From the NCBI GenBank assembly GCA_004292795.1, contig RDXI01000003.1, forward strand, positions 1-36,546: a DNA stretch of 36,546 nt, written 5' to 3'. Each line of letters opens with the position of its first letter. Position 1 is the first letter of the stretch. The notes under the pieces are model-generated. The model saw only the letters and a list, made by a program, of their open reading frames with translations, ran no database searches and had not been told where the DNA came from. The position numbers and the translations under genes were made by a program. Source of the DNA: Bacteroidota bacterium (GTDB taxonomy: Bacteria > Bacteroidota > Bacteroidia > Cytophagales > Microscillaceae). Positions 2,183 through 35,235 of this stretch are shown one piece after another.

Positions 2183-3457
2183 ATGTTAATTCAATTCTCT
2201 GTCAAGAACTACAAGACCTTTGCTGAAGAGGCAAAATTGAGTATGGTAGCAAACCACGATAAGACTACTCGCTTTGCTGAAAATGTTTTTCAAGTACCTA
2301 AATACAACTTAAATCTACTCAAAAGTGCAGTAGTGTATGGTGCAAATGCAAGCGGAAAGACAAAGTTGGTAGAAGCCTTTGCCTTTATGCGTGGCTTTGT
2401 GCGCGAGTCAGCAAAACAACAAAGTGATGATACTATCCCTGTCCAACCCTTTAGATTAAGCACCGAAACAGAAAACGAACCTTCTATGTTTGAGATTGTT
2501 TTTATACAAGAAGGCGTTCTGTATCGTTATGGTTTTGAAGTTACAGAGGAAAAAGTGATGTCTGAATGGTTGTACTATAAACCTAAAACAAAAGAAATTG
2601 AACTTTTTTACCGTTTTGAGCAAAATTTTGGAGAGGTACATAAAGACTTTAAAGTACAAGATTTAATCAAACGCAAGAGAGTGTTGGAAAATACCTTGCT
2701 ATTGTCTGTAGCTGACTCTGCCAATGAATCTATTGCCAAGAAAATTTTTTCATGGTTTACTCAATTTAATGTAATTTATGGTTTAAGAGAAATTGAATAT
2801 ATGCATTATACAATTAGTCGTTTAGAAAATGAGATATACAAGACACATATTTTAACTTTCTTAGAAAGTGCAAATTTAGAGATTGAAGATTTATATACCG
2901 TAAAATTACCTGAACTAAATGTTCAAAATAGTATTATGTATTTTATCAAAAAATTTGTTGAGGATAAGAAAGTTTATACAAAACGGGCTAAATATGATGA
3001 AAATAAAAGAAGGGTAGGGCAAGAAGAGTTTGCGATGCTGGAAGATGAGTCCACAGGTACTGCAAAATATTTCGCGCTTTCCGCGCCCATTTTGGATAGT
3101 TTAGAGAATGGAAATACTTTAGTAATTGATGAATTAGATGCCAAACTACATCCTAACTTAGTGGAAAAAATTGTGCAGTTATTTAACTCGCCTACTACTA
3201 ACCCCAAAAATGCACAACTTATTTTCAATACACACAATACCAATTTGTTGGGAGCAAACCTATTCAGGCGCGACCAAATTTGGTTTGTGAAAAAAGACCG
3301 TTATGGAACTTCTACGCTGTATTCTTTGGCGAGCTTTAAAACAGACGAAGTGCGCAAAGATGATAATTATGAAAATAAATACATAGAAGGGCGTTATGGG
3401 GCAGTGCCTTATTTGCAGGAGTTTGAAAAGTATATCACTAACAAAACCAATAATTAA
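2183..3457 (+). CDS. AAA15-family ATPase (AbiLi/RloA-like), defence cassette gene 1
   Basis: A 424-residue ATPase of the AAA15/AAA21 group (SMC/ABC-like fold). Visible motifs: N-terminal strand IQFSVKNYKTF, Walker A GANASGKT at 53-60, Walker B LVIDELD at about 313-319 followed by KLHPNL, and an H-loop histidine H351 (FNTHNTN). The middle (about 120-280) is the lysine- and glutamate-rich insertion typical of the family. The next gene starts 1 bp after the stop, so the two are translationally coupled. AAA15 plus RloB is the architecture of Lactococcus AbiL, and PARIS (AriA/AriB) is analogous. By that analogy the ATPase would sense a phage trigger and control the nuclease-like partner. Function in this strain is inferred. 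The gene is AT-richer than its neighbours and poor in the YAGGCRAG motif. Confidence 0.85.
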   Translation: MLIQFSVKNYKTFAEEAKLSMVANHDKTTRFAENVFQVPKYNLNLLKSAVVYGANASGKTKLVEAFAFMRGFVRESAKQQSDDTIPVQPFRLSTETENEPSMFEIVFIQEGVLYRYGFEVTEEKVMSEWLYYKPKTKEIELFYRFEQNFGEVHKDFKVQDLIKRKRVLENTLLLSVADSANESIAKKIFSWFTQFNVIYGLREIEYMHYTISRLENEIYKTHILTFLESANLEIEDLYTVKLPELNVQNSIMYFIKKFVEDKKVYTKRAKYDENKRRVGQEEFAMLEDESTGTAKYFALSAPILDSLENGNTLVIDELDAKLHPNLVEKIVQLFNSPTTNPKNAQLIFNTHNTNLLGANLFRRDQIWFVKKDRYGTSTLYSLASFKTDEVRKDDNYENKYIEGRYGAVPYLQEFEKYITNKTNN

Positions 3458-3458
3458 C

Positions 3459-4175
3459 ATGGCACGATTGAACAATAAAAAAGCACGCCAAGAAGCAGAC
3501 CGCGAAGCGCACAAAGCCCAAAAACAACAAAGAAAAAGAGGTGAGGAAAATATAGCACATGATGAGCAAGATGCTGTTTTACAAAAGCGTATTTTAATTG
3601 TTTGTGAAGGAACATTAACAGAGCCTTCTTATTTTGAGCAATTTAAGGCGCAAAACGTTACCATAAAAGGTACAGGAACAAATACGCGTACCGTAGTAGA
3701 AGAAGCGGCTTTTTGGGATAATGAAGGAGCGTATGACGAAGTTTGGTGTGTGTTTGATAAAGACTCATTCTCAGCCCAACAGTTCAATCAAGCTATCGTA
3801 GATGCTCAAATCAAAAAGTTTAAAGTTGCTTTTTCGAATCAATCTTTTGAATATTGGCTTTTACTCCATTTCGAAGACCATCAAGGTGGAAAAATGGACA
3901 GAGTTTTATATTATGATAAAATAAACAACTATTTAATGGATTATGGTTTGTCTTATGAAAAAGACCATAAAGAAATTACAAAAAGGATTTTTGAGGAGTT
4001 ACAAGCTGTTGTACAGACTGATAGAGAGGGTAATAAATTGACACGCCAAGACTTAGCCATCAGACGAGCCAAACGCATACATGAAGACCACAAAACACAA
4101 GGCAACTCGCCTGCACAGTCCGAGTCTTGTACTACTGTCTATGAGTTGGTAGAAGAAATTAGGAAATACTTGTAA
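3459..4175 (+). CDS. RloB-domain protein (AbiLii-like), TOPRIM-like putative nuclease
   Basis: 238 residues starting at the ATG 1 bp after the ATPase stop; an upstream in-frame start would overlap the ATPase and is not needed. The first 40 residues are basic and charged. Then comes the RloB core: VCEGTLTEPSYF with E50, VFDKDSF with D100 and D102, and the family hallmark SNQSFEYWLLLHF at 126-138. The E...DxD spacing resembles a TOPRIM metal site, which supports a nuclease role; this is family inference, not shown here. It is the second gene of the AbiL-type cassette, and a terminator follows. Confidence 0.85.
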   Translation: MARLNNKKARQEADREAHKAQKQQRKRGEENIAHDEQDAVLQKRILIVCEGTLTEPSYFEQFKAQNVTIKGTGTNTRTVVEEAAFWDNEGAYDEVWCVFDKDSFSAQQFNQAIVDAQIKKFKVAFSNQSFEYWLLLHFEDHQGGKMDRVLYYDKINNYLMDYGLSYEKDHKEITKRIFEELQAVVQTDREGNKLTRQDLAIRRAKRIHEDHKTQGNSPAQSESCTTVYELVEEIRKYL

Positions 4176-20865: not shown

Positions 20866-23187
20866 CTACATTATTTGAATGATATATGCTAAGTTTCTTT
20901 TAGCCATTTGTGTATGAGGGTGTTCTTCTCCTAAAACCTCCTGCCATATTTGATAGGCTTGTGCTACTAATGACTTTGCTTTGTCATATTCTTGCATATT
21001 AAAATATAATGTGCCTATATTATAGACAGAACCGATTGTATTAGGGTGTTTTTCACCTAACACTTCTTTAAATATTTGTAAAGCCTGTTCATGTAAAGGT
21101 AAAGCTTTGGCATAATTATTTTGATTTTGATATAACAAAGCTATATTATCCAAAGAAGATGCTGTATCAGGATGTTTTTCGCCTAATACTTCTTTCCGTA
21201 TTTGCAAAGATTGTTCATACAAAGGCAGGGCTTGAGCGTAATCACCTTGCTTAGCATATACACCTGCTATATTATGCAAAGATAATGCTATATAAGGATG
21301 TTTTTCTCCTAATACTTCTTTCCATATTTGCAAAACTTCTTTATACAAAGGCAAGGCTTTAGTATAATCGCCTTGATTTTGATATAACGTAGCTATATTA
21401 TGCAAAGAAAATATTGTATCAGGGTGTTTTTCTCCTAATACTTCTTTCCATATTTGCAAAGCCTGTTCATACAAAGGCAAGGCTTTTGCATTGTTGCCTT
21501 GATTGTAATATAATGTGGCTATATTATTCAAAGATTGTGCTGTATCAGGGTGTTTTTCTCCTAATACCTCTTTACGTATTTGCAAAGCCTGTTCATACAA
21601 AGGCAAGGCTTTGGCATAGTGTCCTTGATTTTGATATAACAAAGCTATATTATTCAAAGATAGTGCTGTATGAGGGTGTTTTTCTCCTAAATTTTTTTTT
21701 CGTATTTGCAAAGCCTGTTCAAATAAAGGTAGGGCTTTGGCATAATCACTACTTGTAACATATAAAAAACCTATTTGATTTTGTAAATAAGCTTTGTTTT
21801 CGAAGTCGTTTTGATAATCTATATGTTGTAACAAAGACTCCCCATAGCTTACAAGTCCTTTTGCTTGCAAGGGATTGGCTATTACTTCATCTGAAGTTAA
21901 TAACTCGCCTATAGTATCATGCAAAATAGCACAATCTTTATAAGTAGGCTCATACTTTTGCAAAATAAGCAGTTGTATAAGGCGGTGCATTTGTACGGCT
22001 TCATTATCTATCAAAGAAATCCAACCTTTTTTGGCTAAATCTTCTAATACTTGGCGGTACATTTCTATTTCCTCACTTGCTGACCGTAAAATTAAAACTA
22101 TAGGCAAGGGTTCAGTAGGCAAGACTGCTATTTGTTTGAGTAGATGCAAGGCTTCAGTAGGCAAGGCATCAAACATAAACACACGCAAAAGGTAGGTGTA
22201 GAGTTGTATTTCCTTTTTGCTGTGTGCAGTCTGCACCATTCTTTGTAGCACTTGGTCGTCTATGGCTTTGGCGCGTATCTTGTCGGCAAAGTCGGCTATG
22301 CTGTGCAGTCCTGTATGCGCTTGGTAGTTCTTGGCGAGTATCTCGGTCATCAAAGTATGGTAACCTATTTCTTGCAAAAGGGCTTTTAGTTCCGTTTCGT
22401 CTATGTCCTTGCCTGTGCAGTACATTCGGAAAAGAGCCATTGCCTCCTCTTCCGAGAGCGTGTCTAAATCCATAGCTGTAAAGCCCGCTACTTGCTCGCG
22501 TGAGGTAAAAAGCACGCGCCAATGCTTAGAAAAAGGAAAGTCAGCCAAGATATTATAGGCTTCTTCGTGGGTGTCTTGTTGGTAGTTGTCCAATACCAAT
22601 AAGTTTTTGCCTGTGAGTTTAGCCAATTTATATATCATCATTTCAAAACGTTGCGCAGGCGTTTCGTTCTGAAAAGTCAATCCTAATTCCATTCTTAAAA
22701 TGGCATTATCTACAAAGGCATCAATAGGTTTGCCTGTCTGTTCGAGCCAGACGATATGGTCATACAAACCTTCGTGTTGTTTGATGTACTCACGCGCAAG
22801 GGTAGTCTTGCCTATTCCGCCCAAGCCATTCACGACTACAGTAGGCAAGTTTTGTTGCAAGTGTGCGTGCATATCTTCGAGTTCCTTTTTCCTGCCTATG
22901 AACTTAGATTCATACACAAACTTGGTCAAGAAAATCGTGGCTTCCTTCTTTTCCTCATCAGGCAAGGACGTTTTGATATATTCTTTTTGTGCGTTTAAGA
23001 ATACCTCTAACTGCTGTGCAAAGTGTCTGTTTGTTTCACCTGCTACAAAGCGGTCTTCTAAGTCTTTGAGTTGAAACATTACTGCACTTGTGGCGTTATT
23101 TTTATCTATGTTTTTGTGCATCAACCTAAAGAAGTTGGCGTATTGGGCTTTTTCGATAAAGTGGTGGGCTTGTTCGAGGGCTGTCAT
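20866..23187 (-). CDS. STAND (NB-ARC) NTPase with N-terminal adaptor-like domain and TPR array
   Basis: 773 residues. About 1-75 is a small helical domain (EQAHHFIEKAQYANFFRLM...FVAGE) resembling effector-associated domains of the EAD11 type; this is a weak assignment. P-loop NGLGGIGKTTLA at 120-131, Walker B LLVLD at 196-200 and LFTSR at 226-230 mark an NB-ARC ATPase, followed by a winged-helix region (about 330-450). From about 465 to 770 run seven TPR_12-type repeats of 42 residues (YAKALPLYEQALQIRKEVLG is the unit core), nearly identical in DNA with a 126-bp period. STAND proteins with EAD and TPR act as ligand-triggered switches in bacterial conflict and phage sensing. No obvious effector gene is adjacent. 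The leader is a G-free tandem repeat. Confidence 0.88.
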   Translation of the reverse strand: MTALEQAHHFIEKAQYANFFRLMHKNIDKNNATSAVMFQLKDLEDRFVAGETNRHFAQQLEVFLNAQKEYIKTSLPDEEKKEATIFLTKFVYESKFIGRKKELEDMHAHLQQNLPTVVVNGLGGIGKTTLAREYIKQHEGLYDHIVWLEQTGKPIDAFVDNAILRMELGLTFQNETPAQRFEMMIYKLAKLTGKNLLVLDNYQQDTHEEAYNILADFPFSKHWRVLFTSREQVAGFTAMDLDTLSEEEAMALFRMYCTGKDIDETELKALLQEIGYHTLMTEILAKNYQAHTGLHSIADFADKIRAKAIDDQVLQRMVQTAHSKKEIQLYTYLLRVFMFDALPTEALHLLKQIAVLPTEPLPIVLILRSASEEIEMYRQVLEDLAKKGWISLIDNEAVQMHRLIQLLILQKYEPTYKDCAILHDTIGELLTSDEVIANPLQAKGLVSYGESLLQHIDYQNDFENKAYLQNQIGFLYVTSSDYAKALPLFEQALQIRKKNLGEKHPHTALSLNNIALLYQNQGHYAKALPLYEQALQIRKEVLGEKHPDTAQSLNNIATLYYNQGNNAKALPLYEQALQIWKEVLGEKHPDTIFSLHNIATLYQNQGDYTKALPLYKEVLQIWKEVLGEKHPYIALSLHNIAGVYAKQGDYAQALPLYEQSLQIRKEVLGEKHPDTASSLDNIALLYQNQNNYAKALPLHEQALQIFKEVLGEKHPNTIGSVYNIGTLYFNMQEYDKAKSLVAQAYQIWQEVLGEEHPHTQMAKRNLAYIIQIM
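20870..21795 (-). repeat. 126-bp coding repeats (TPR array)
   Basis: Seven in-frame 126-bp units. On the plus strand, for example, the word GCCTGTTCATACAAAGGC recurs at 126-bp spacing near 21466 and 21592. Units 1-6 differ at few positions, which points to recent amplification or gene conversion. No YAGGCRAG motif lies in the array. Confidence 0.85.
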
Positions 23188-23342: not shown

Positions 23343-24368
23343 TCAACCCAAAAAAGGCTTCATTGCCAAAGGAGGCAAGACATGATGCACTGCCCCGCGC
23401 TTGATAGCCTCGCGTGGCATACCAAACACCACACAAGAAGCCTCGTCTTGGGCTATCGTGAGGCTACCCGCTTCGTATAGTTGCTCCATACCTTGCGCCC
23501 CATCACTGCCCATACCTGTTAGCAAAATGCCTGTAGCTTTATTTTGGTAAATACGCGCCACCGAACCAAAAAGCGCGTCAATCGAAGGCGCGTTGTACGC
23601 CGAAAAAATGTCTTGTGTGTAAGCAAAAAAGACTTCATTCTTGCCTACTTCCTTTTGCAAAACCATATTGCCATCAGCAGGCAAGAGATAAATATGTCTT
23701 GCCTCTACTGTAATGCCCTCCACCGCCACCAAAATAGGCAAGTGCAAGGTTTCTTGCAATCGTTTGGCGAAAGATTGTGCAAAAGCGGGCGGAATGTGCT
23801 GTGCTATCACAATGGGCGTGATGAAGTGGGCAGGCAAGAGGCTTAGCAAGTATTCTATCACACTTGTTCCGCCTGTTGATGCCCCTATCACTACGATTTG
23901 CGTAGGCGAGTTGCGAGTCGGTAGGGGAGTAGGCGAGGTAAAAGAAGCATTTTTTCGCTCCTTCGAAGTGATTTCCTTAAGCTTTTGTACTAAATTTCCC
24001 GCTTGTTCGCGCATTTTGGAATTGAGCATACCCGCAGGTTTCAGCATAAAATCTATCGCGCCTGCTTGCATTGCCTCCCAAATACTTTCCGAATTTTCGG
24101 GGTTTTGCGCAGTCAGTAGCAGGATAGGGCAGGGGCAGTGCGTCATAATTTGGCGCGTAGCATACACGCCATCGAAGTCGGGCATTATCAAATCCAACAA
24201 CACCGCATCAGGTTTTTGCGCTTGAGTGATTTGCCACGCCTCTTCGCCATTCGAGGCTGTTCCCACAATCTCGATGCTCGCCTCCGAAGCCAGCATATCG
24301 CACAGAAGCAAGCGCATAAAAGCCGAGTCATCAGCCAACACTACCCTAATCTTGTCTGCCTCAACCAT
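23343..24368 (-). CDS. cheB: Chemotaxis response regulator protein-glutamate methylesterase CheB
   Basis: 341 residues. The receiver domain (about 6-125) has acidic pocket D13/D14, phosphoacceptor D59 (LLDLIMPD) and K110 (MLKPAG). A linker of about 30 residues follows. The methylesterase domain has catalytic S164 (GASTGGT), H191 (QHIPP) and D289 (GMGSDGA). It demethylates or deamidates chemoreceptor glutamates when phosphorylated. The first 8 bp (ATGGTTGA) overlap the stop of the upstream sensor gene, so both are made together. No cheR, cheA, cheW or receptor gene is in the window. Confidence 0.95.
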   Translation of the reverse strand: MVEADKIRVVLADDSAFMRLLLCDMLASEASIEIVGTASNGEEAWQITQAQKPDAVLLDLIMPDFDGVYATRQIMTHCPCPILLLTAQNPENSESIWEAMQAGAIDFMLKPAGMLNSKMREQAGNLVQKLKEITSKERKNASFTSPTPLPTRNSPTQIVVIGASTGGTSVIEYLLSLLPAHFITPIVIAQHIPPAFAQSFAKRLQETLHLPILVAVEGITVEARHIYLLPADGNMVLQKEVGKNEVFFAYTQDIFSAYNAPSIDALFGSVARIYQNKATGILLTGMGSDGAQGMEQLYEAGSLTIAQDEASCVVFGMPREAIKRGAVHHVLPPLAMKPFLG

Positions 24369-26409
24369 TTTTCAGTTCTTGAATAATGCGGTCTCTTTCT
24401 TTCAACTGTTCTTGGAGTTCGGTTTGTAGGCGTTGCAAACGGCTCGATGCCTTCGCTTCTACTTCGCGGATACGGTTCACCACATCTCGCTTGCTCATTT
24501 GTAGCTCTTTGAGTTGTTCGTGGATTTGGCGTTCTTGCTCCTTTTGTTTGGTAATTTCATAGCCAATAGAAGAGATTTTGAGTATCTTTCCATCTTTGTT
24601 GAAAAGCGGATAAATCACTTCGTACATCCAGAATTTTTGCCCTGTCTTGTTGAAGCGTACAAACTCGCCTGACAAAATATTGCCCTGCAAGATACTTTGC
24701 CAATCAGTCAAAACTTTGGTGTCATTGGCACGCATACCAAGCAACATACTAAAGTGTTGGTTCATCAATTCGCTCAAATGATAGCCCGACAAATTCAACA
24801 AGTTTTCGTTCACACGAATAAAGTTGCCACGCATATCGAAGTCCATCATCATAAACACCGAGTCTAAGGCTTGCAACTGACGCTCCATTTCATACGAATT
24901 GCGTGCCATGAGTTCTTGCGCAGTAGTAACCTCTTCCAAACTTTGGCGCGTTTCTTCTTCTTGTTCTTGCAAACGAAGCGCGAGGGCTTGCGACTCATCA
25001 AGAAGGCGTTTTGTTTCTTCATCTATTTGAATACGCACAATCGTAGCCGCGATACTGTCCGCTATCCTTTGCATAAATTCTATCTGTCGGTGTTCGAAAG
25101 TTTGTAAATGCGCAAACTCCAAAACGCCTACTACAGTGCCGTCTGTGATAAGAGGCACGACCAAAATGCTTTTAGGTTGCGCCCCGCCCAAGCCCGAACT
25201 AATCTCGGCATAGTCGTATGGAATATCTGTGATATGCACAATGTCTTTCTCGCGCCACACACGCCCCACGAGTCCCTCGCCTATTTCTACTTCTTTGATG
25301 ATGTACTTTTGGCGCGAGAAGGCATAACTTGCCCGCATTTCCATCATGTTTTTGTGGGCATTGTAGGCAAAAACTCCGCCCTGCGTAACTTCGCCATACC
25401 TCACAAGTTCCGCTATCAATATTTCATAAAAATCTACATCTCGGTTTCGCTCCCGCAAAATCTCGCCCATCAACGCAAAGCCTTCGTTGAACCAGTTTCT
25501 TTCGTTGGTTTCTTCTACAATTTGTTTCAAGCTAAGGCGCATTTTGGTAACCTCATTGCCTATTGCTCCCTTGCCACCAAAAGGGCGTATTTCTGTGTCA
25601 AACTTACCCGAACCTACTTCAATCGCCAAACCCTTCAAACGTGTGAACACACCGTTGAGTTTTTCGGTAGTTTCAGCTATAGGCATCAACTCTACAATTT
25701 TGGTGGGTGTAATTTTAGGAAAGTTTCCTTGTGTGAAGTCTTGCAAATAGGTATTCAGGCGGTTTATGTTTCCTATCATACGATTGTAGATAAGCACAAT
25801 ACTCAAACTACCAATCAACATAATGGCTAATACTAAGGCAAAAACAGTATAAAAAATCCAATCGCGCATTTGGTTCAGGGCATTGCTACCGCTCTGAAAC
25901 GTAACTTCCTTATCCAAAAACAAGGCGTTGATGCTTTTTTGTACGCGCTCCACCTGCACGTCAAACTCTCGTTCTGCCTTTGCAAGAGTAGTTTCTTTCG
26001 TTAGTCCTTTGCGCCAATAGGCTTCCAGCGTGCTTATTTGTTCGCGCATATCGTTCACTTTGTCAATCAGGCGTGCATCTTGGATAGCATATATCAAATT
26101 TTTCAAAGAGTCTTGATAAGGGAAAATGCGCTCTTTCCAAATGCCCTCCGCCACCATTTTCGTAGCCTCGCGCTTGAAGAGCCAATATTGTGCATTGACA
26201 TACGCCAATTTATGCACCTCGCCTGCCAACTGCAAGGAGTACGATTGCGCCACTCTTGTACGAAACAAGCCATCTTGCGTAATTTTACGCAGTTGCACGA
26301 TTTCCAACGAGAGTGTTACCAACCCTGCTACGGTTAGAATCCCTAAAAATATATACAATCGCCATATTCGCCCCAATATGGAACGTCTGTCTAAGCTGAA
26401 AATGCGCAT
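24361..26409 (-). CDS. Membrane sensor with HAMP, GAF and PAS domains and no kinase domain
   Basis: 682 residues. TM1 about 14-35, a roughly 145-residue periplasmic helical sensor, TM2 about 184-208, then two HAMP-like units (about 208-262 and 262-300, the second with EVGSGKF). GAF is about 320-460, a coiled coil about 462-515, PAS about 515-630 (VNENLLNLSGYHLSEL), and a second coiled coil ends the protein. There is no histidine-kinase, GGDEF, cyclase or MCP signalling domain. Its stop overlaps the cheB start by 8 bp, so CheB or a partner bound to the final coiled coil is the likely output. The leader is a G-free tandem repeat shared with the end of the upstream hydrolase gene. Confidence 0.88.
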   Translation of the reverse strand: MRIFSLDRRSILGRIWRLYIFLGILTVAGLVTLSLEIVQLRKITQDGLFRTRVAQSYSLQLAGEVHKLAYVNAQYWLFKREATKMVAEGIWKERIFPYQDSLKNLIYAIQDARLIDKVNDMREQISTLEAYWRKGLTKETTLAKAEREFDVQVERVQKSINALFLDKEVTFQSGSNALNQMRDWIFYTVFALVLAIMLIGSLSIVLIYNRMIGNINRLNTYLQDFTQGNFPKITPTKIVELMPIAETTEKLNGVFTRLKGLAIEVGSGKFDTEIRPFGGKGAIGNEVTKMRLSLKQIVEETNERNWFNEGFALMGEILRERNRDVDFYEILIAELVRYGEVTQGGVFAYNAHKNMMEMRASYAFSRQKYIIKEVEIGEGLVGRVWREKDIVHITDIPYDYAEISSGLGGAQPKSILVVPLITDGTVVGVLEFAHLQTFEHRQIEFMQRIADSIAATIVRIQIDEETKRLLDESQALALRLQEQEEETRQSLEEVTTAQELMARNSYEMERQLQALDSVFMMMDFDMRGNFIRVNENLLNLSGYHLSELMNQHFSMLLGMRANDTKVLTDWQSILQGNILSGEFVRFNKTGQKFWMYEVIYPLFNKDGKILKISSIGYEITKQKEQERQIHEQLKELQMSKRDVVNRIREVEAKASSRLQRLQTELQEQLKERDRIIQELKNG

Positions 26410-28413: not shown

Positions 28414-29109
28414 ATGCCCGTAAGAATAGTAAAAGATGATGCGAATGAAGAAGTTTTAAGCGACTACTTCAACTTTGACAACCCACAGGAAACTCAATCC
28501 AACGATTCACAAGATAATAGTTGGGGAGGAGGTGGCTCTCACAACAATTCAAGCGGAGGCAATGCCTTGTTTTCCTTTTTGGGAAGTATGGCGGTGCAGG
28601 CTTGCGTGAATTATGCCTTCAATGCTCTTTGGGGAGGCAGTAGCAAAAAAAATGTATCACATTCTTCTACGCCTCAAAGTCGTATGAACTACCAAGAGGC
28701 AGACGATATGCTACAGCAACGGTTGGCTTCTGCCGAGCTTTGCGTGAGTATGTGGGCGCACACTACTTTGTCTGATGGCAAAATGCAACAAGCCGAAAGA
28801 GAGGCAGTCGACGAACTCATCACGGATACAGTAAGCAAACTTTTCCCACAAGATATTGCTGACCAAACTATAGCGAGCAGTACCTTGCAGAAACGCCTTA
28901 GGTCGCCTTATAGCTACCAAGAAGTAGTGAGCCAAGCCGTTCATGACTATAACTTTGCCCTGAAACTCTATCAACAGGCTTGCCTACTGGTAGCCTCTGA
29001 CGAAAACCTCCAAGAAAAAGAAAACGTTTTTTTGGCGAATTTGGCGCAAGACCTTCGTATCCAAGATGATGATGTGTCGCAGGCAAGAAGCCACTACAAG
29101 TTGTTCTAA
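28414..29109 (+). CDS. TerB-like domain protein with conserved N-terminal tag
   Basis: 231 residues from the ATG at 28414. Residues 1-27 carry MPVRIVKDD...YFNFDNP, shared with the next gene. A Ser/Gly/Asn-rich linker follows (about 28-50), then a short hydrophobic helix (about 51-75). From about 95 is a helical TerB-type domain with two acidic sites, LSDGKMQQAERE and ASDENLQEKEN, typical of TerB metal-binding loops. TerB proteins sit at the membrane side of tellurite/stress response complexes. No terC/terD genes are here. The next gene starts 46 bp downstream. Function unknown. Confidence 0.75.
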   Translation: MPVRIVKDDANEEVLSDYFNFDNPQETQSNDSQDNSWGGGGSHNNSSGGNALFSFLGSMAVQACVNYAFNALWGGSSKKNVSHSSTPQSRMNYQEADDMLQQRLASAELCVSMWAHTTLSDGKMQQAEREAVDELITDTVSKLFPQDIADQTIASSTLQKRLRSPYSYQEVVSQAVHDYNFALKLYQQACLLVASDENLQEKENVFLANLAQDLRIQDDDVSQARSHYKLF

Positions 29110-29155
29110 GCAATCATTCCCTAATTTTATTTATTCACTTTTCACCCATTACGCC

Positions 29156-29326
29156 ATGCCTGTACGCATTGTAGAAGACGATGAAGACGAAATGTTGTCT
29201 AATGATGACAACTTCGACTTTGACAACCCAGACGCAGATGTCGAAGACGCTTATGATTCTGAGGAAGAGGAGTATGACTCTGAGGAAGAGGAGTACGATG
29301 AAGACTACGAAGAAGAAGAAGAATAG
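29156..29326 (+). CDS. Hyperacidic 56-residue protein sharing its N-terminal tag with the TerB-like protein
   Basis: ATG at 29156. The start MPVRIVEDDEDE...NFDFDNPD aligns with the upstream protein (MPVRIVKDDANE...YFNFDNPQ), which supports a real coding gene despite its size. The second half is Asp/Glu only, apart from Tyr and Ser, with DSEEEEY repeated twice (two 21-bp DNA units). It is likely disordered, possibly a cation- or protein-binding tail. A hairpin terminator follows, so it closes a two-gene unit. Function unknown. Confidence 0.7.
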   Translation: MPVRIVEDDEDEMLSNDDNFDFDNPDADVEDAYDSEEEEYDSEEEEYDEDYEEEEE

Positions 29327-29346
29327 ACATCTAACTTTCAAAAGAG

Positions 29347-29384
29347 GGGTAAATTTCAAAAGCCTTGAAATTTGCCCTTTGTTG
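29347..29384 (+). terminator. Terminator after the hyperacidic gene
   Basis: 13-bp stem GGGTAAATTTCAA / TTGAAATTTGCCC with one wobble and a 5-nt loop, then TTTGTTG. Confidence 0.7.
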
Positions 29385-29407: not shown

Positions 29408-30916
29408 ATGAACAAAAAAATACTCCTCTTACTTGGCATCGCGTCTGTCCTTGCCTACTGCTCGCCTAAGAAGAAACAAGAGGGCAACGAAACCAATAAC
29501 AACAACAATAATCAAGGCAAAACTTTCGCGCTTGCGCAAGGTTGCGACCTGAACCAAAAGGAATTTGACAAGGCAGAGGTTTTTGAGCCATTGGCAAAGA
29601 CATTGCCCGAAAACAAAACGGGACGCAAGGCTTCCCTGCTCAAGTACGCACCCAAGCGCATGAGCCAGGGTAGGCAAGGTTCGTGTACTTCGTGGGCGTG
29701 TGTCTATGCGACTACGACCATTTTGCACGCTTCGGCTACAGGCAAGAACCCCAACGACATAGCCTTCAGTCCCGCCTTCATTTACAACCAAATGACTCGC
29801 GGCAACTGCACAGGTACGAACATTGCGAAAGCATTGGATAAATTGGTAAATGAAGGCTCGGTGTCGCTCAATGATTTTCCTTATACCGACAAATCTTGCA
29901 ACACGCAACCCAACGCCCAACTGAAACAAAAAGCGGAAAAGTTCAAACTGCGTGGCTACAATCGCTTGACACTCAAGCACGACAACTACAAAATAGACAT
30001 GGAAGCCATCAAACAAAACCTTTCGCAAGGCGCACCCGTAGTGATTGGTATGGCAGTGGGCGGAACGTTCAACAGTGTAGGCAGTGGCGGACTTTGGGCA
30101 CCTACCAAACAAGACTATACCAACGTGAAGAAAAGCCTTGATGGGCATATCGTTGATGATGGCGGTGGCGGTTCGTTTGGCGGACACGCTATGTGCGTAG
30201 TGGGTTTTGATGATGACTACGAAGGCGGTGCTTTCCAAATTATGAACTCTTGGGGGGCAGATTGGGGAGCTGATGGGCTTTTCTGGATGCGCTACAAAGA
30301 TTTTGAATACTTTGTGAATACGTTTTATGGTGAGGCTTACGGCTTGTATCCTTTGGCAAAACAGAAAAGAGACAACAATAGCACTGATTTTCAATGCGCT
30401 ATCGGGCTTTTGGACAACCAAACCAAAAAATATTTTCCCTTCAAAGGCAAAGGTGGCAATGTGTTCGAAACTGAAGATGTCTTGCCTAAAGGCACAAAAT
30501 TCAAAATAGCTGTGAAGAACGAAGAGGAATGTTATGTGTATGTATTTGGGCAAGAAACAGACGGCAGTAGCTATGTGTTGTTCCCTTATACCGAAAAGCA
30601 CTCGCCTTTTATGGGCATTGTGGGAGCGCGTTTGTTCCCCAAAGACCATTCTTTGCAGTTGGACACCAAAGGCACGAAGGACGTAATGGCAGTTATTTTC
30701 ACGAGAGAGAAAATCAATTATAAAGCCTTGAACAAGAAAATAAGCGAAAGCAATGCTTCTACCTATCAAGCCAAAATAGCAGACGCTTTGGGCGATACAG
30801 CTATCAAACAAGCCAAACTCGAAGATGGCGAAAAGATAAGTTTTAGTGCCAAAAGCAGAGGCAAAAATGCGATGGCTATTGTCTTCGAAATCAAAAAGAA
30901 GAAAGCTAATCGTTAG
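29408..30916 (+). CDS. Papain-like (C1A) cysteine protease lipoprotein with C-terminal DUF4384-like domain
   Basis: 502 residues. A lipoprotein-type N-terminus ends in LAYC|SPKKK (Cys18; Tyr at -1 is unusual). An Asn-run linker follows (about 27-36). The peptidase domain (about 60-330) has oxyanion Q87 and catalytic C93 in SQGRQGSCTSWA, H260 in GGHAMCVVGFDDD and N280 in IMNSWG. The C-terminal part (about 345-500) has CYVYVFGQETDGSSYVLFP and DVMAVIFTREKI, as in DUF4384 domains. It is a predicted surface or periplasmic protease. Signal codons hold two adjacent YAGGCRAG motifs. It follows the TerB/acidic pair but behind a terminator, so co-expression is uncertain. Confidence 0.85.
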   Translation: MNKKILLLLGIASVLAYCSPKKKQEGNETNNNNNNQGKTFALAQGCDLNQKEFDKAEVFEPLAKTLPENKTGRKASLLKYAPKRMSQGRQGSCTSWACVYATTTILHASATGKNPNDIAFSPAFIYNQMTRGNCTGTNIAKALDKLVNEGSVSLNDFPYTDKSCNTQPNAQLKQKAEKFKLRGYNRLTLKHDNYKIDMEAIKQNLSQGAPVVIGMAVGGTFNSVGSGGLWAPTKQDYTNVKKSLDGHIVDDGGGGSFGGHAMCVVGFDDDYEGGAFQIMNSWGADWGADGLFWMRYKDFEYFVNTFYGEAYGLYPLAKQKRDNNSTDFQCAIGLLDNQTKKYFPFKGKGGNVFETEDVLPKGTKFKIAVKNEEECYVYVFGQETDGSSYVLFPYTEKHSPFMGIVGARLFPKDHSLQLDTKGTKDVMAVIFTREKINYKALNKKISESNASTYQAKIADALGDTAIKQAKLEDGEKISFSAKSRGKNAMAIVFEIKKKKANR

Positions 30917-33249: not shown

Positions 33250-35235
33250 TCATTTAGCCAAATCCTTGATAAAATTCCACTCTTCGAACCAAGTACCCAC
33301 ATCAACCAGCTTGAGCAAATCTATAAAATCGTGTTCTATATCAAAAGTTAGGTCGTAGGGTTGCAAAACCTGATTTATAACCCATGCCACGTCTTCTTTC
33401 TTAGCAAGTTTGTAGAAGGTTTTGGATTGGATATATTTTTTTACTTGCTCTTGGTAATAAAGCGTTAGTTTCACATTGTTATTTTCCGTAATAGGCGAGG
33501 CAAGAAATAAAGTTTTGGTTTTCTCACGCACATCGATATATCTTAGCACTGCTCCTTCTACCCAAGTGTTGGCGAGGTATTTAGTTTGCAAAATTCGCTC
33601 TAAATTTTCATACGCACTCAAAAGTGTTTCTACAAGGTTAGTATTGATATGTATTTGCTTCCTTATCAACCATCTTTCCAATAATTCTGCTAATTTTTCT
33701 ATATCTGTCAAAAGTATGCCTTCAAAAGTATAAGCATTAGCTATATGGGTAGGGAGTTTGAGTTTATCTTTCATTTTTTGGACAATTTCAGGATAATGCT
33801 CATCACTCAAAAAATCTCTGTCCATGACCAATGCAGATTTTTCCCACAACGTTTTTTTATTTTTGATTTGCTCGAACAAAGTTTTATAGCCCAAAATATC
33901 TTTGAAAACATGGCTTATCCCATTCAATACCCAAAATACATACTTATTTGTTTGCTTGGGCGTAGCTTTGTGCAAAAGCAAATACAAATATTGCGCATCT
34001 TCCTCGCCTTCCACAAAAATAATCTTATCTGCCTCTATAGCATTTATAAAGTCCAAACCTGTAGCCTCACCTATAGAGCGCATGATGCTGTCCGTATGTG
34101 ATGGATAAATTCCTTTGAAACGCTTATCACCTGTTTTTTGTATGGGAGCAAGTTCCAATACATTTAGGGGCTTGTAGCTGTTTTTGGGCGTATTTTCCAA
34201 ATGAAATAAATGCGACTTTACAGCATTTCTTATAAACGCCTCGTTGTGTGTGGTAACAAAAAACTGACTTTCTTTTGATTTTTGTCCTATAACTTCTAAA
34301 AGTCTTGCCTGAATATCACGATGTATATGACTGTCGGGTTCGTCCAATAATATCAAATTTAAGTTACTTTTTTGTTCTTTATAGTACAAATTGAGTAAAA
34401 TTTCTATAATTTGTAATGTACCGCTTCCCAACAGTGCAATATCTTTTTCTACATCTTTTTCGCCTACTTTGAAGTTGAATATTACTTGCGCATCTCGTTG
34501 AATATCAGTTTTTTTGATGAAAATAATTTTTTTACTTTCTATACCATTCGATAAGATATAGTTCAAATCTTTCAAGAAACTATCAAATAATAATACATCA
34601 TGTGTATTGTTGTAAATGGCATATAGTCTATTCCTTAATACTGTAGCCGAGTTTCTTTCTAAAATAGCCTTGCGAATAATGGGAGGTGTTGTAAAATCCT
34701 CTACTTGTAAAATACTTGAAACAGGTGAGGCATAAAATATATTGATAGGATATGGAAAAGCATCAAAAAAATCATTAAAATCTTTGTAATAGTTGTTGTG
34801 TTGACCTTTGTTAATGTTTTCTATGAGATAGTTTGAGCCAGAACTGCCTATTTGAAAGCCAACTTCAAGTTCATTATCTTCATGCTGAAGTTGGGCAACA
34901 AGTTGAATTTTAACTTTATCACCCGTAATTCTTTGGAAGAAAATATCCTCAAAATTGGGGCTTCTGATACTATTTATTTGTTCAAAAGGGAAATATTTAT
35001 GCTCATTGTTGCCAAGCACATAATCTCCTTTTTTGTACGCAGTTGCTCTTTTGTTATCCCGTTTTGCTTGTATCAATAACTTAACGAAACATTCTTGCCA
35101 TAAAGCTATAGCTTCCAAGAGGGTTGTCTTGCCTGCATTATTTTCGCCTGTGAATATATTAACATCAGGATTGAACTCAAAACATACATCTTCAAAGGAT
35201 TTAAAGTTTTGAATACGCAAAGATTTGATATACAT
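33250..35235 (-). CDS. OLD-family ATPase-TOPRIM nuclease
   Basis: 661 residues. N-terminal ABC/SMC-like ATPase: Walker A GENNAGKTT at 30-38, signature-like LLGSGTLQ at 269-276, Walker B LILLDEPDSHIH at 294-305 and H-loop TTHN at 328-331. The TOPRIM domain starts at about 400 with VEG (E409) and MDRD (D472, D474). The last 150 residues are lysine-rich and helical. Fused ATPase-TOPRIM is the Overcoming Lysogenization Defect family. No UvrD-like helicase is adjacent, so it is class 1 (P2 OLD-like) and not Gabija. Probable phage-defence nuclease. It begins 45 bp after the LytTR gene on the same strand with no clear promoter or terminator between. Confidence 0.9.
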   Translation of the reverse strand: MYIKSLRIQNFKSFEDVCFEFNPDVNIFTGENNAGKTTLLEAIALWQECFVKLLIQAKRDNKRATAYKKGDYVLGNNEHKYFPFEQINSIRSPNFEDIFFQRITGDKVKIQLVAQLQHEDNELEVGFQIGSSGSNYLIENINKGQHNNYYKDFNDFFDAFPYPINIFYASPVSSILQVEDFTTPPIIRKAILERNSATVLRNRLYAIYNNTHDVLLFDSFLKDLNYILSNGIESKKIIFIKKTDIQRDAQVIFNFKVGEKDVEKDIALLGSGTLQIIEILLNLYYKEQKSNLNLILLDEPDSHIHRDIQARLLEVIGQKSKESQFFVTTHNEAFIRNAVKSHLFHLENTPKNSYKPLNVLELAPIQKTGDKRFKGIYPSHTDSIMRSIGEATGLDFINAIEADKIIFVEGEEDAQYLYLLLHKATPKQTNKYVFWVLNGISHVFKDILGYKTLFEQIKNKKTLWEKSALVMDRDFLSDEHYPEIVQKMKDKLKLPTHIANAYTFEGILLTDIEKLAELLERWLIRKQIHINTNLVETLLSAYENLERILQTKYLANTWVEGAVLRYIDVREKTKTLFLASPITENNNVKLTLYYQEQVKKYIQSKTFYKLAKKEDVAWVINQVLQPYDLTFDIEHDFIDLLKLVDVGTWFEEWNFIKDLAK

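What the first reader, a model, noticed from the sequence alone, without database searches (positions are those of the whole stretch)
28414..29326. TerB-like protein and hyperacidic microprotein share an N-terminal tag
Both begin MPVRIV[KE]DD and contain NFDNP/DFDNP about 20 residues later, although the rest is unrelated. A shared short head on two adjacent proteins suggests a targeting or assembly tag, or a gene born by copying the 5' end of its neighbour and adding an acidic repeat tail. This may be part of an undescribed system.
Basis: seen in the sequence. Interest (0 to 1): 0.62.

Follow-up and report, generated by a model that had tools for sequence, protein, structure and literature searches.

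The report
TerB protein and microprotein share head
In one Bacteroidota (Cytophagales) genome, a 56-residue, very acidic small protein carries the same roughly 24-residue start as the TerB-family protein encoded just upstream; that start turns out to be the most conserved part of a small, undescribed TerB subfamily, so it is a real protein motif, but the paired small protein has been seen only once.

Summary
In detail: two adjacent ORFs (28414-29109, 231 aa; 29156-29326, 56 aa) share a 24/25-residue head (MPVRIV.D...E......F.FDNP), and this is not chance. A head profile built only from other genomes' proteins finds the microprotein at E 7e-7; the best of 2000 shuffles has E 18. The head is the N-terminus of a small DUF533/TerB subfamily: six proteins from three genera of another family of the same order (Thermoflexibacter ruber, Cytophagales MAGs) carry it at the same spacing. 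It is their best conserved part (77% pairwise identity against 43% for the TerB domain). It is not a general tag: 291 genomes hold eight tagged proteins, seven TerB-like and this microprotein. The microprotein was found in this genome only and not in its sister species. Best reading: a linear motif on a flexible tether of a possibly membrane-bound TerB protein, copied onto an acidic repeat tail to give a head mimic that competes for, or joins, the same unknown partner. Translation and function are untested. 'Tag of a wider system' is not supported; 'gene born from a neighbour's 5' end' is plausible, but the copy is old.

The parts
28414..29109 (+). DUF533/TerB-family protein P0001, 231 aa: head, low-complexity linker, hydrophobic helix, TerB-like helical domain
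   Evidence: ORF; Pfam DUF533 39.5 bits (cut-off 29.6) and TerB 29.1 bits (cut-off 24.4); homologues in six other genomes
28414..28485 (+). Conserved N-terminal head, 24 residues MPVRIVKDDANEEVLSDYFNFDNP
   Evidence: 13 of 24 columns invariant in six homologues, 77% mean pairwise identity; predicted disordered, pLDDT under 50
28486..28554 (+). Gly/Ser/Asn-rich linker, variable in length and sequence among homologues
   Evidence: Alignment A1, 34% identity, pLDDT under 50
28555..28635 (+). Hydrophobic helix, residues 48-74 (core ALFSFLGSMAVQACVNYAF), possible membrane anchor or membrane-surface helix
   Evidence: Predicted helix 48-74; best 19-residue mean hydropathy 1.35, below the usual 1.6 threshold
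28690..29106 (+). TerB-like helical domain, residues 93-231
   Evidence: Pfam TerB 110-225; predicted helices; best structural match 2ou3 (COG3793 tellurite resistance protein), Z 7.1, 126 residues, and 2h5n, Z 6.9
29156..29326 (+). 56-residue hyperacidic microprotein ORF P0002
   Evidence: ORF; head retains all 12 residues invariant across the aligned heads
29156..29230 (+). Head of the microprotein, 25 residues MPVRIVEDDEDEMLSNDDNFDFDNP
   Evidence: E 4.7e-7 with profile A1 that does not contain it; E 7e-7 with a profile that leaves the window out
29252..29299 (+). 21-bp tandem repeat in the acidic tail coding for YDSEEEE units
   Evidence: Tandem Repeats Finder, 2.3 copies, 88% matches
29339..29384 (+). 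RNA hairpin just after the microprotein stop; possible transcript end of the two-gene unit
   Evidence: -20.1 kcal/mol, z -3.4, none of 200 shuffles as stable; it lacks a long U tract and the terminator scan did not list it

Best explanation
P0001 belongs to a small subfamily of DUF533/TerB proteins built as: 24-residue conserved head, flexible linker, hydrophobic helix, TerB domain. The head is most likely a short linear binding motif presented on a tether. The microprotein arose from a duplicated head of this family to which an acidic repeat tail was added, and is expressed from the same transcript. It most likely acts as a head mimic: it binds the same (unknown) partner and either competes with P0001 or brings polyanionic charge to the complex. 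Shown: homology of the two heads, stronger conservation of the head than of the rest, synonymous change inside it, order and spacing of the genes. Inferred: co-transcription, translation of the small ORF, partner binding, competition.
For: Head present at identical spacing in TerB-like proteins of six genomes from three genera; head 77% identical against 34% linker and 43% TerB domain; head and linker predicted disordered, helix and TerB domain folded; microprotein keeps all 12 invariant head residues, with synonymous codon differences from its neighbour at P2, R4, I5, D8 and D17, which argues for selection on the peptide; profile evidence independent of the window E 7e-7; 46-bp gap between the ORFs without predicted structure, strong hairpin after the second.
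Against: Microprotein found in one genome only, so no comparative proof that it is translated or kept by selection as a whole. No partner identified and no conserved gene neighbour of the tagged TerB genes. If the helix spans the membrane, the positive residues after it (KK here, K/R in homologues, seen) favour a head outside the cytoplasm, where a microprotein without signal peptide would not meet it; the helix hydropathy is borderline.
Confidence: 0.42

Rival explanations
1. Neutral gene birth: a duplicated 5' end of a TerB-family gene plus slippage-grown acidic repeats gives an ORF without a function of its own; the head similarity is only a relic of its origin.
For: Single-genome occurrence, tandem repeat nearly exact at DNA level in the tail, absence from the sister species at the same locus.
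Against: The head copy is not recent (15/25 identity to its neighbour, synonymous changes) yet all 12 family-invariant residues are intact, which a relic would hardly keep.
Confidence: 0.3
2. The head is a localisation or assembly signal that sends both proteins to one site (for example a membrane-bound complex), where the acidic tail works as a charge or metal buffer for the TerB protein, rather than as a competitor.
For: TerB-like domains occur on membrane-attached stress proteins such as DjlA (PMC11709261), with a membrane helix before TerB as may be the case here; the head is terminal, exposed and conserved; 32 of 56 residues acidic.
Against: No other protein in the genome or order carries the head, unusual for a general localisation signal; no metal or partner data.
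Confidence: 0.2
3. The shared stretch is conserved as nucleic acid (translation start or regulatory element), not as peptide.
For: Both copies lie at the 5' end of the ORFs; a 24-nt stretch around FDNP is 92% identical at DNA level.
Against: The MPVRIV part differs at synonymous sites (CCC/CCT, AGA/CGC, ATA/ATT) while the peptide is identical; same in other genomes.
Confidence: 0.05

Closest known systems
Pfam DUF533 (PF04391; E. coli YebE type, from general knowledge) and TerB (PF05099)
   Same: P0001 scores above both curated cut-offs; all six aligned proteins match DUF533, four match TerB; a hydrophobic segment precedes the helical domain.
   Different: The conserved 24-residue head and the tether lie outside both matches; the DUF533 match starts at residue 50.
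DjlA (membrane-anchored TerB + J-domain cochaperone)
   Same: Short N-terminal part, one membrane helix, then a TerB-like domain (described in PMC11709261).
   Different: No J domain here; hydrophobic helix weaker; the head-sharing microprotein has no counterpart that I know of.
ter (tellurite resistance / stress) gene clusters
   Same: TerB-like domain; the genome also has three TerD-family genes.
   Different: TerD genes lie on other contigs; neighbours here are a DAO oxidoreductase and a papain-like peptidase.
microProteins that mimic a domain of a larger relative and act as competitors (concept, from general knowledge)
   Same: Small protein that repeats one interaction-type part of a larger protein.
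   Different: Shares a disordered head rather than a folded dimerisation domain; encoded next to the relative; competition untested.

Membership tests
Pfam DUF533 (PF04391) | Score above the curated gathering cut-off | tested here: met
   39.5 bits against 29.6, residues 50-223; 6 of 6 aligned homologues match
Pfam TerB (PF05099) | Score above the curated gathering cut-off | tested here: met
   29.1 bits against 24.4, residues 110-225
Pfam TerB (PF05099) | TerB-like all-helical fold | tested here: inconclusive
   Top structural match is a COG3793 tellurite resistance protein, 2ou3, Z 7.1 over 126 residues, 4.1 A, but unrelated helical proteins score 6-7 too
ter gene cluster (TerZABCDEF-type) | TerB gene next to TerC/TerD-family genes | tested here: not met
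   Adjacent genes are DAO and Peptidase_C1; the three TerD genes are on contigs C21, C399, C82
ter gene cluster (TerZABCDEF-type) | Tellurite or related stress resistance | not testable with these tools
   Needs a deletion strain and a resistance assay
Tagged DUF533/TerB subfamily (defined here) | Head MPVRIV.D...E......F.F[DE]NP followed by linker, hydrophobic helix and TerB domain | tested here: met
   P0001 and six homologues; the microprotein P0002 meets the head only, not the TerB part
Anti-phage defence protein (PADLOC models) | Match to a PADLOC-DB model | tested here: not met
   No match at E 0.1 for P0001, P0002 or the T. ruber homologue

The most novel reading that the evidence does not exclude
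A bicistronic pair in which a TerB-family protein is regulated by a cis-encoded microprotein that copies only its disordered N-terminal binding motif and carries it on a polyanionic tail: a bacterial motif-mimic regulator born by partial gene duplication.
Probability: 0.15. Interest if true: 0.65.

Novelty: new variant of a known kind. Interest (0 to 1): 0.36.

Why it matters
TerB/DUF533 proteins are widespread and their biochemistry and partners are mostly unknown. A terminal motif that is better conserved than the domain gives a concrete handle for fishing out such a partner. The microprotein, if translated, would be a natural competitor peptide and a case of a bacterial small gene born from a neighbour's 5' end.

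Tried and rejected
General tag: head pattern and profile searches over the own genome, 291 genomes of the order, 395 of the class and the genome-contig collection gave TerB-like proteins only; the next best profile hit has E 0.07, i.e. chance. The single viral-contig hit is not in frame; no plasmid match. Conserved operon: no shared neighbour among six tagged loci and no acidic small ORF near them. Contig from a foreign organism: the adjacent DAO gene is 68% identical to the sister species G001 and at most about 45% to other family members, so the contig is native. Recent copy of the P0001 5' end: made unlikely by codon and residue differences. PDB sequence searches gave nothing usable. First protein-pattern scan of genome contigs with P0001 alone found no relative. 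Papers: nothing found on this subfamily; the TerB review cited in PMC11709261 is not held.

Full report
What is there. The window is contig C98 of a 4.56-Mb, 82% complete genome; hits in related genomes place it in the same order as Thermoflexibacter and several Cytophagales MAGs. Two ORFs on the + strand follow a DAO-family oxidoreductase gene: P0001, 28414-29109, 231 aa, and P0002, 29156-29326, 56 aa. P0001 matches Pfam DUF533 and TerB above their cut-offs. P0002 has no family match in Pfam, NCBIfam or PADLOC; 32 of its 56 residues are D or E.

Is the shared head real? Yes. MPVRI-type DNA occurs twice in the window where 0.04 is expected. The alignment score of the heads exceeds all of 20,000 shuffles. 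A profile built from the five distinct heads of other genomes, without any window sequence, gives P0001 E 2e-10 and P0002 E 7e-7, with the best of 2000 shuffled P0002 at E 18.

Where the head comes from. Searching 291 genomes of the order for MPVRI followed by FDNP found five further genomes, all of one other family (f4), one protein each; the alignment profile found a sixth, with FENP. All are DUF533/TerB-type proteins with the head at the very N-terminus. Named records include Thermoflexibacter ruber, a MAG labelled Bernardetiaceae and several Cytophagales MAGs. In family f4, 6 of 13 held genomes have it. In the window's own family only the window's genome has it among 15, and the sister species has other genes downstream of the same DAO gene.

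Anatomy. In P0001 and its homologues the head (77% mean pairwise identity, 13 of 24 columns invariant) is better conserved than the linker (34%), the hydrophobic helix (50%) or the TerB domain (43%). The AlphaFold model, from a shallow alignment of six sequences, gives low confidence for residues 1-49, a helix 48-74 and a helical domain 93-231 (mean pLDDT 68). The best structural matches include a COG3793 tellurite resistance protein, 2ou3 (Z 7.1), and 2h5n (Z 6.9), but unrelated helical proteins score close by. The helix 48-74 has a hydropathy of 1.35, so membrane insertion is possible but not assured. The layout of short N-terminus, helix, TerB recalls DjlA as described in PMC11709261.

The microprotein. 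It keeps all 12 residues that are invariant in the aligned heads, with one inserted residue. Its head is not a fresh copy of its neighbour's: 15 of 25 positions are identical to P0001 but 18 to the T. ruber-type head, and several shared residues use different codons. The tail contains a 21-bp tandem repeat, the kind of sequence that grows by slippage. The ORFs are 46 bp apart with no predicted structure between them, and a strong hairpin follows the second stop, which fits a two-gene transcript; the hairpin has no long U run, so calling it a terminator is inference.

How it may work. A terminal, disordered, conserved motif on a variable tether in front of a domain is the usual form of a short linear binding motif (inference from general knowledge). 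The microprotein then looks like a mimic of that motif. Either it competes with P0001 for a partner or it joins the same complex and adds negative charge. The partner is unknown, and no gene is shared by the neighbourhoods of the tagged genes. A caution: if the helix is transmembrane, the lysines/arginines after it favour a head on the outer side, and then a cytoplasmic microprotein would not meet the same partner.

How far it goes. The head is not a general tag. A head profile over 291 genomes gives eight matches with E 5e-12 or better, seven TerB-like and the one microprotein, then nothing until E 0.07 (this profile includes the microprotein, the independent tests are). A strict pattern over the genome-contig collection gives TerB-like proteins only, apart from chance hits without the rest of the head. 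The genome also holds three TerD-family genes on other contigs, so Ter-type functions may exist in this organism, but the pair is not part of a ter cluster.

Verdict. Without translation data and without a second genome that has the microprotein, the functional reading stays moderate in confidence.

Noticed in passing
window 29408-30916 (+): Papain-like Peptidase_C1 followed by DUF4384 in one lipoprotein-like protein, directly downstream of the microprotein.
   Followed up: no
window 20866-23187 (-): NB-ARC ATPase followed by an array of very similar TPR_12/TPR_10 repeats, a STAND-type regulator.
   Followed up: no
window 33250-35235 (-) and 2183-3457 (+): Two AAA_15/AAA_21 ATPases (AbiEii-like in Pfam's wording); the one at 2183-3457 overlaps a second ORF at 3396-4175.
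   Followed up: no
window 23343-26409 (-): CheB methylesterase with receiver domain next to a GAF/PAS sensor protein, overlapping ORFs.
   Followed up: no
L016, L015, L024 (tagged TerB homologues): Linkers of several homologues hold repeated GGLLxLLGGGG-like units whose number varies between species.
   Followed up: partly
window 29339-29384: Very stable hairpin between the microprotein and the peptidase gene, with a 13-nt direct repeat nearby.
   Followed up: partly
G000 contigs C21, C399, C82: Three TerD-family genes elsewhere in the genome.
   Followed up: no
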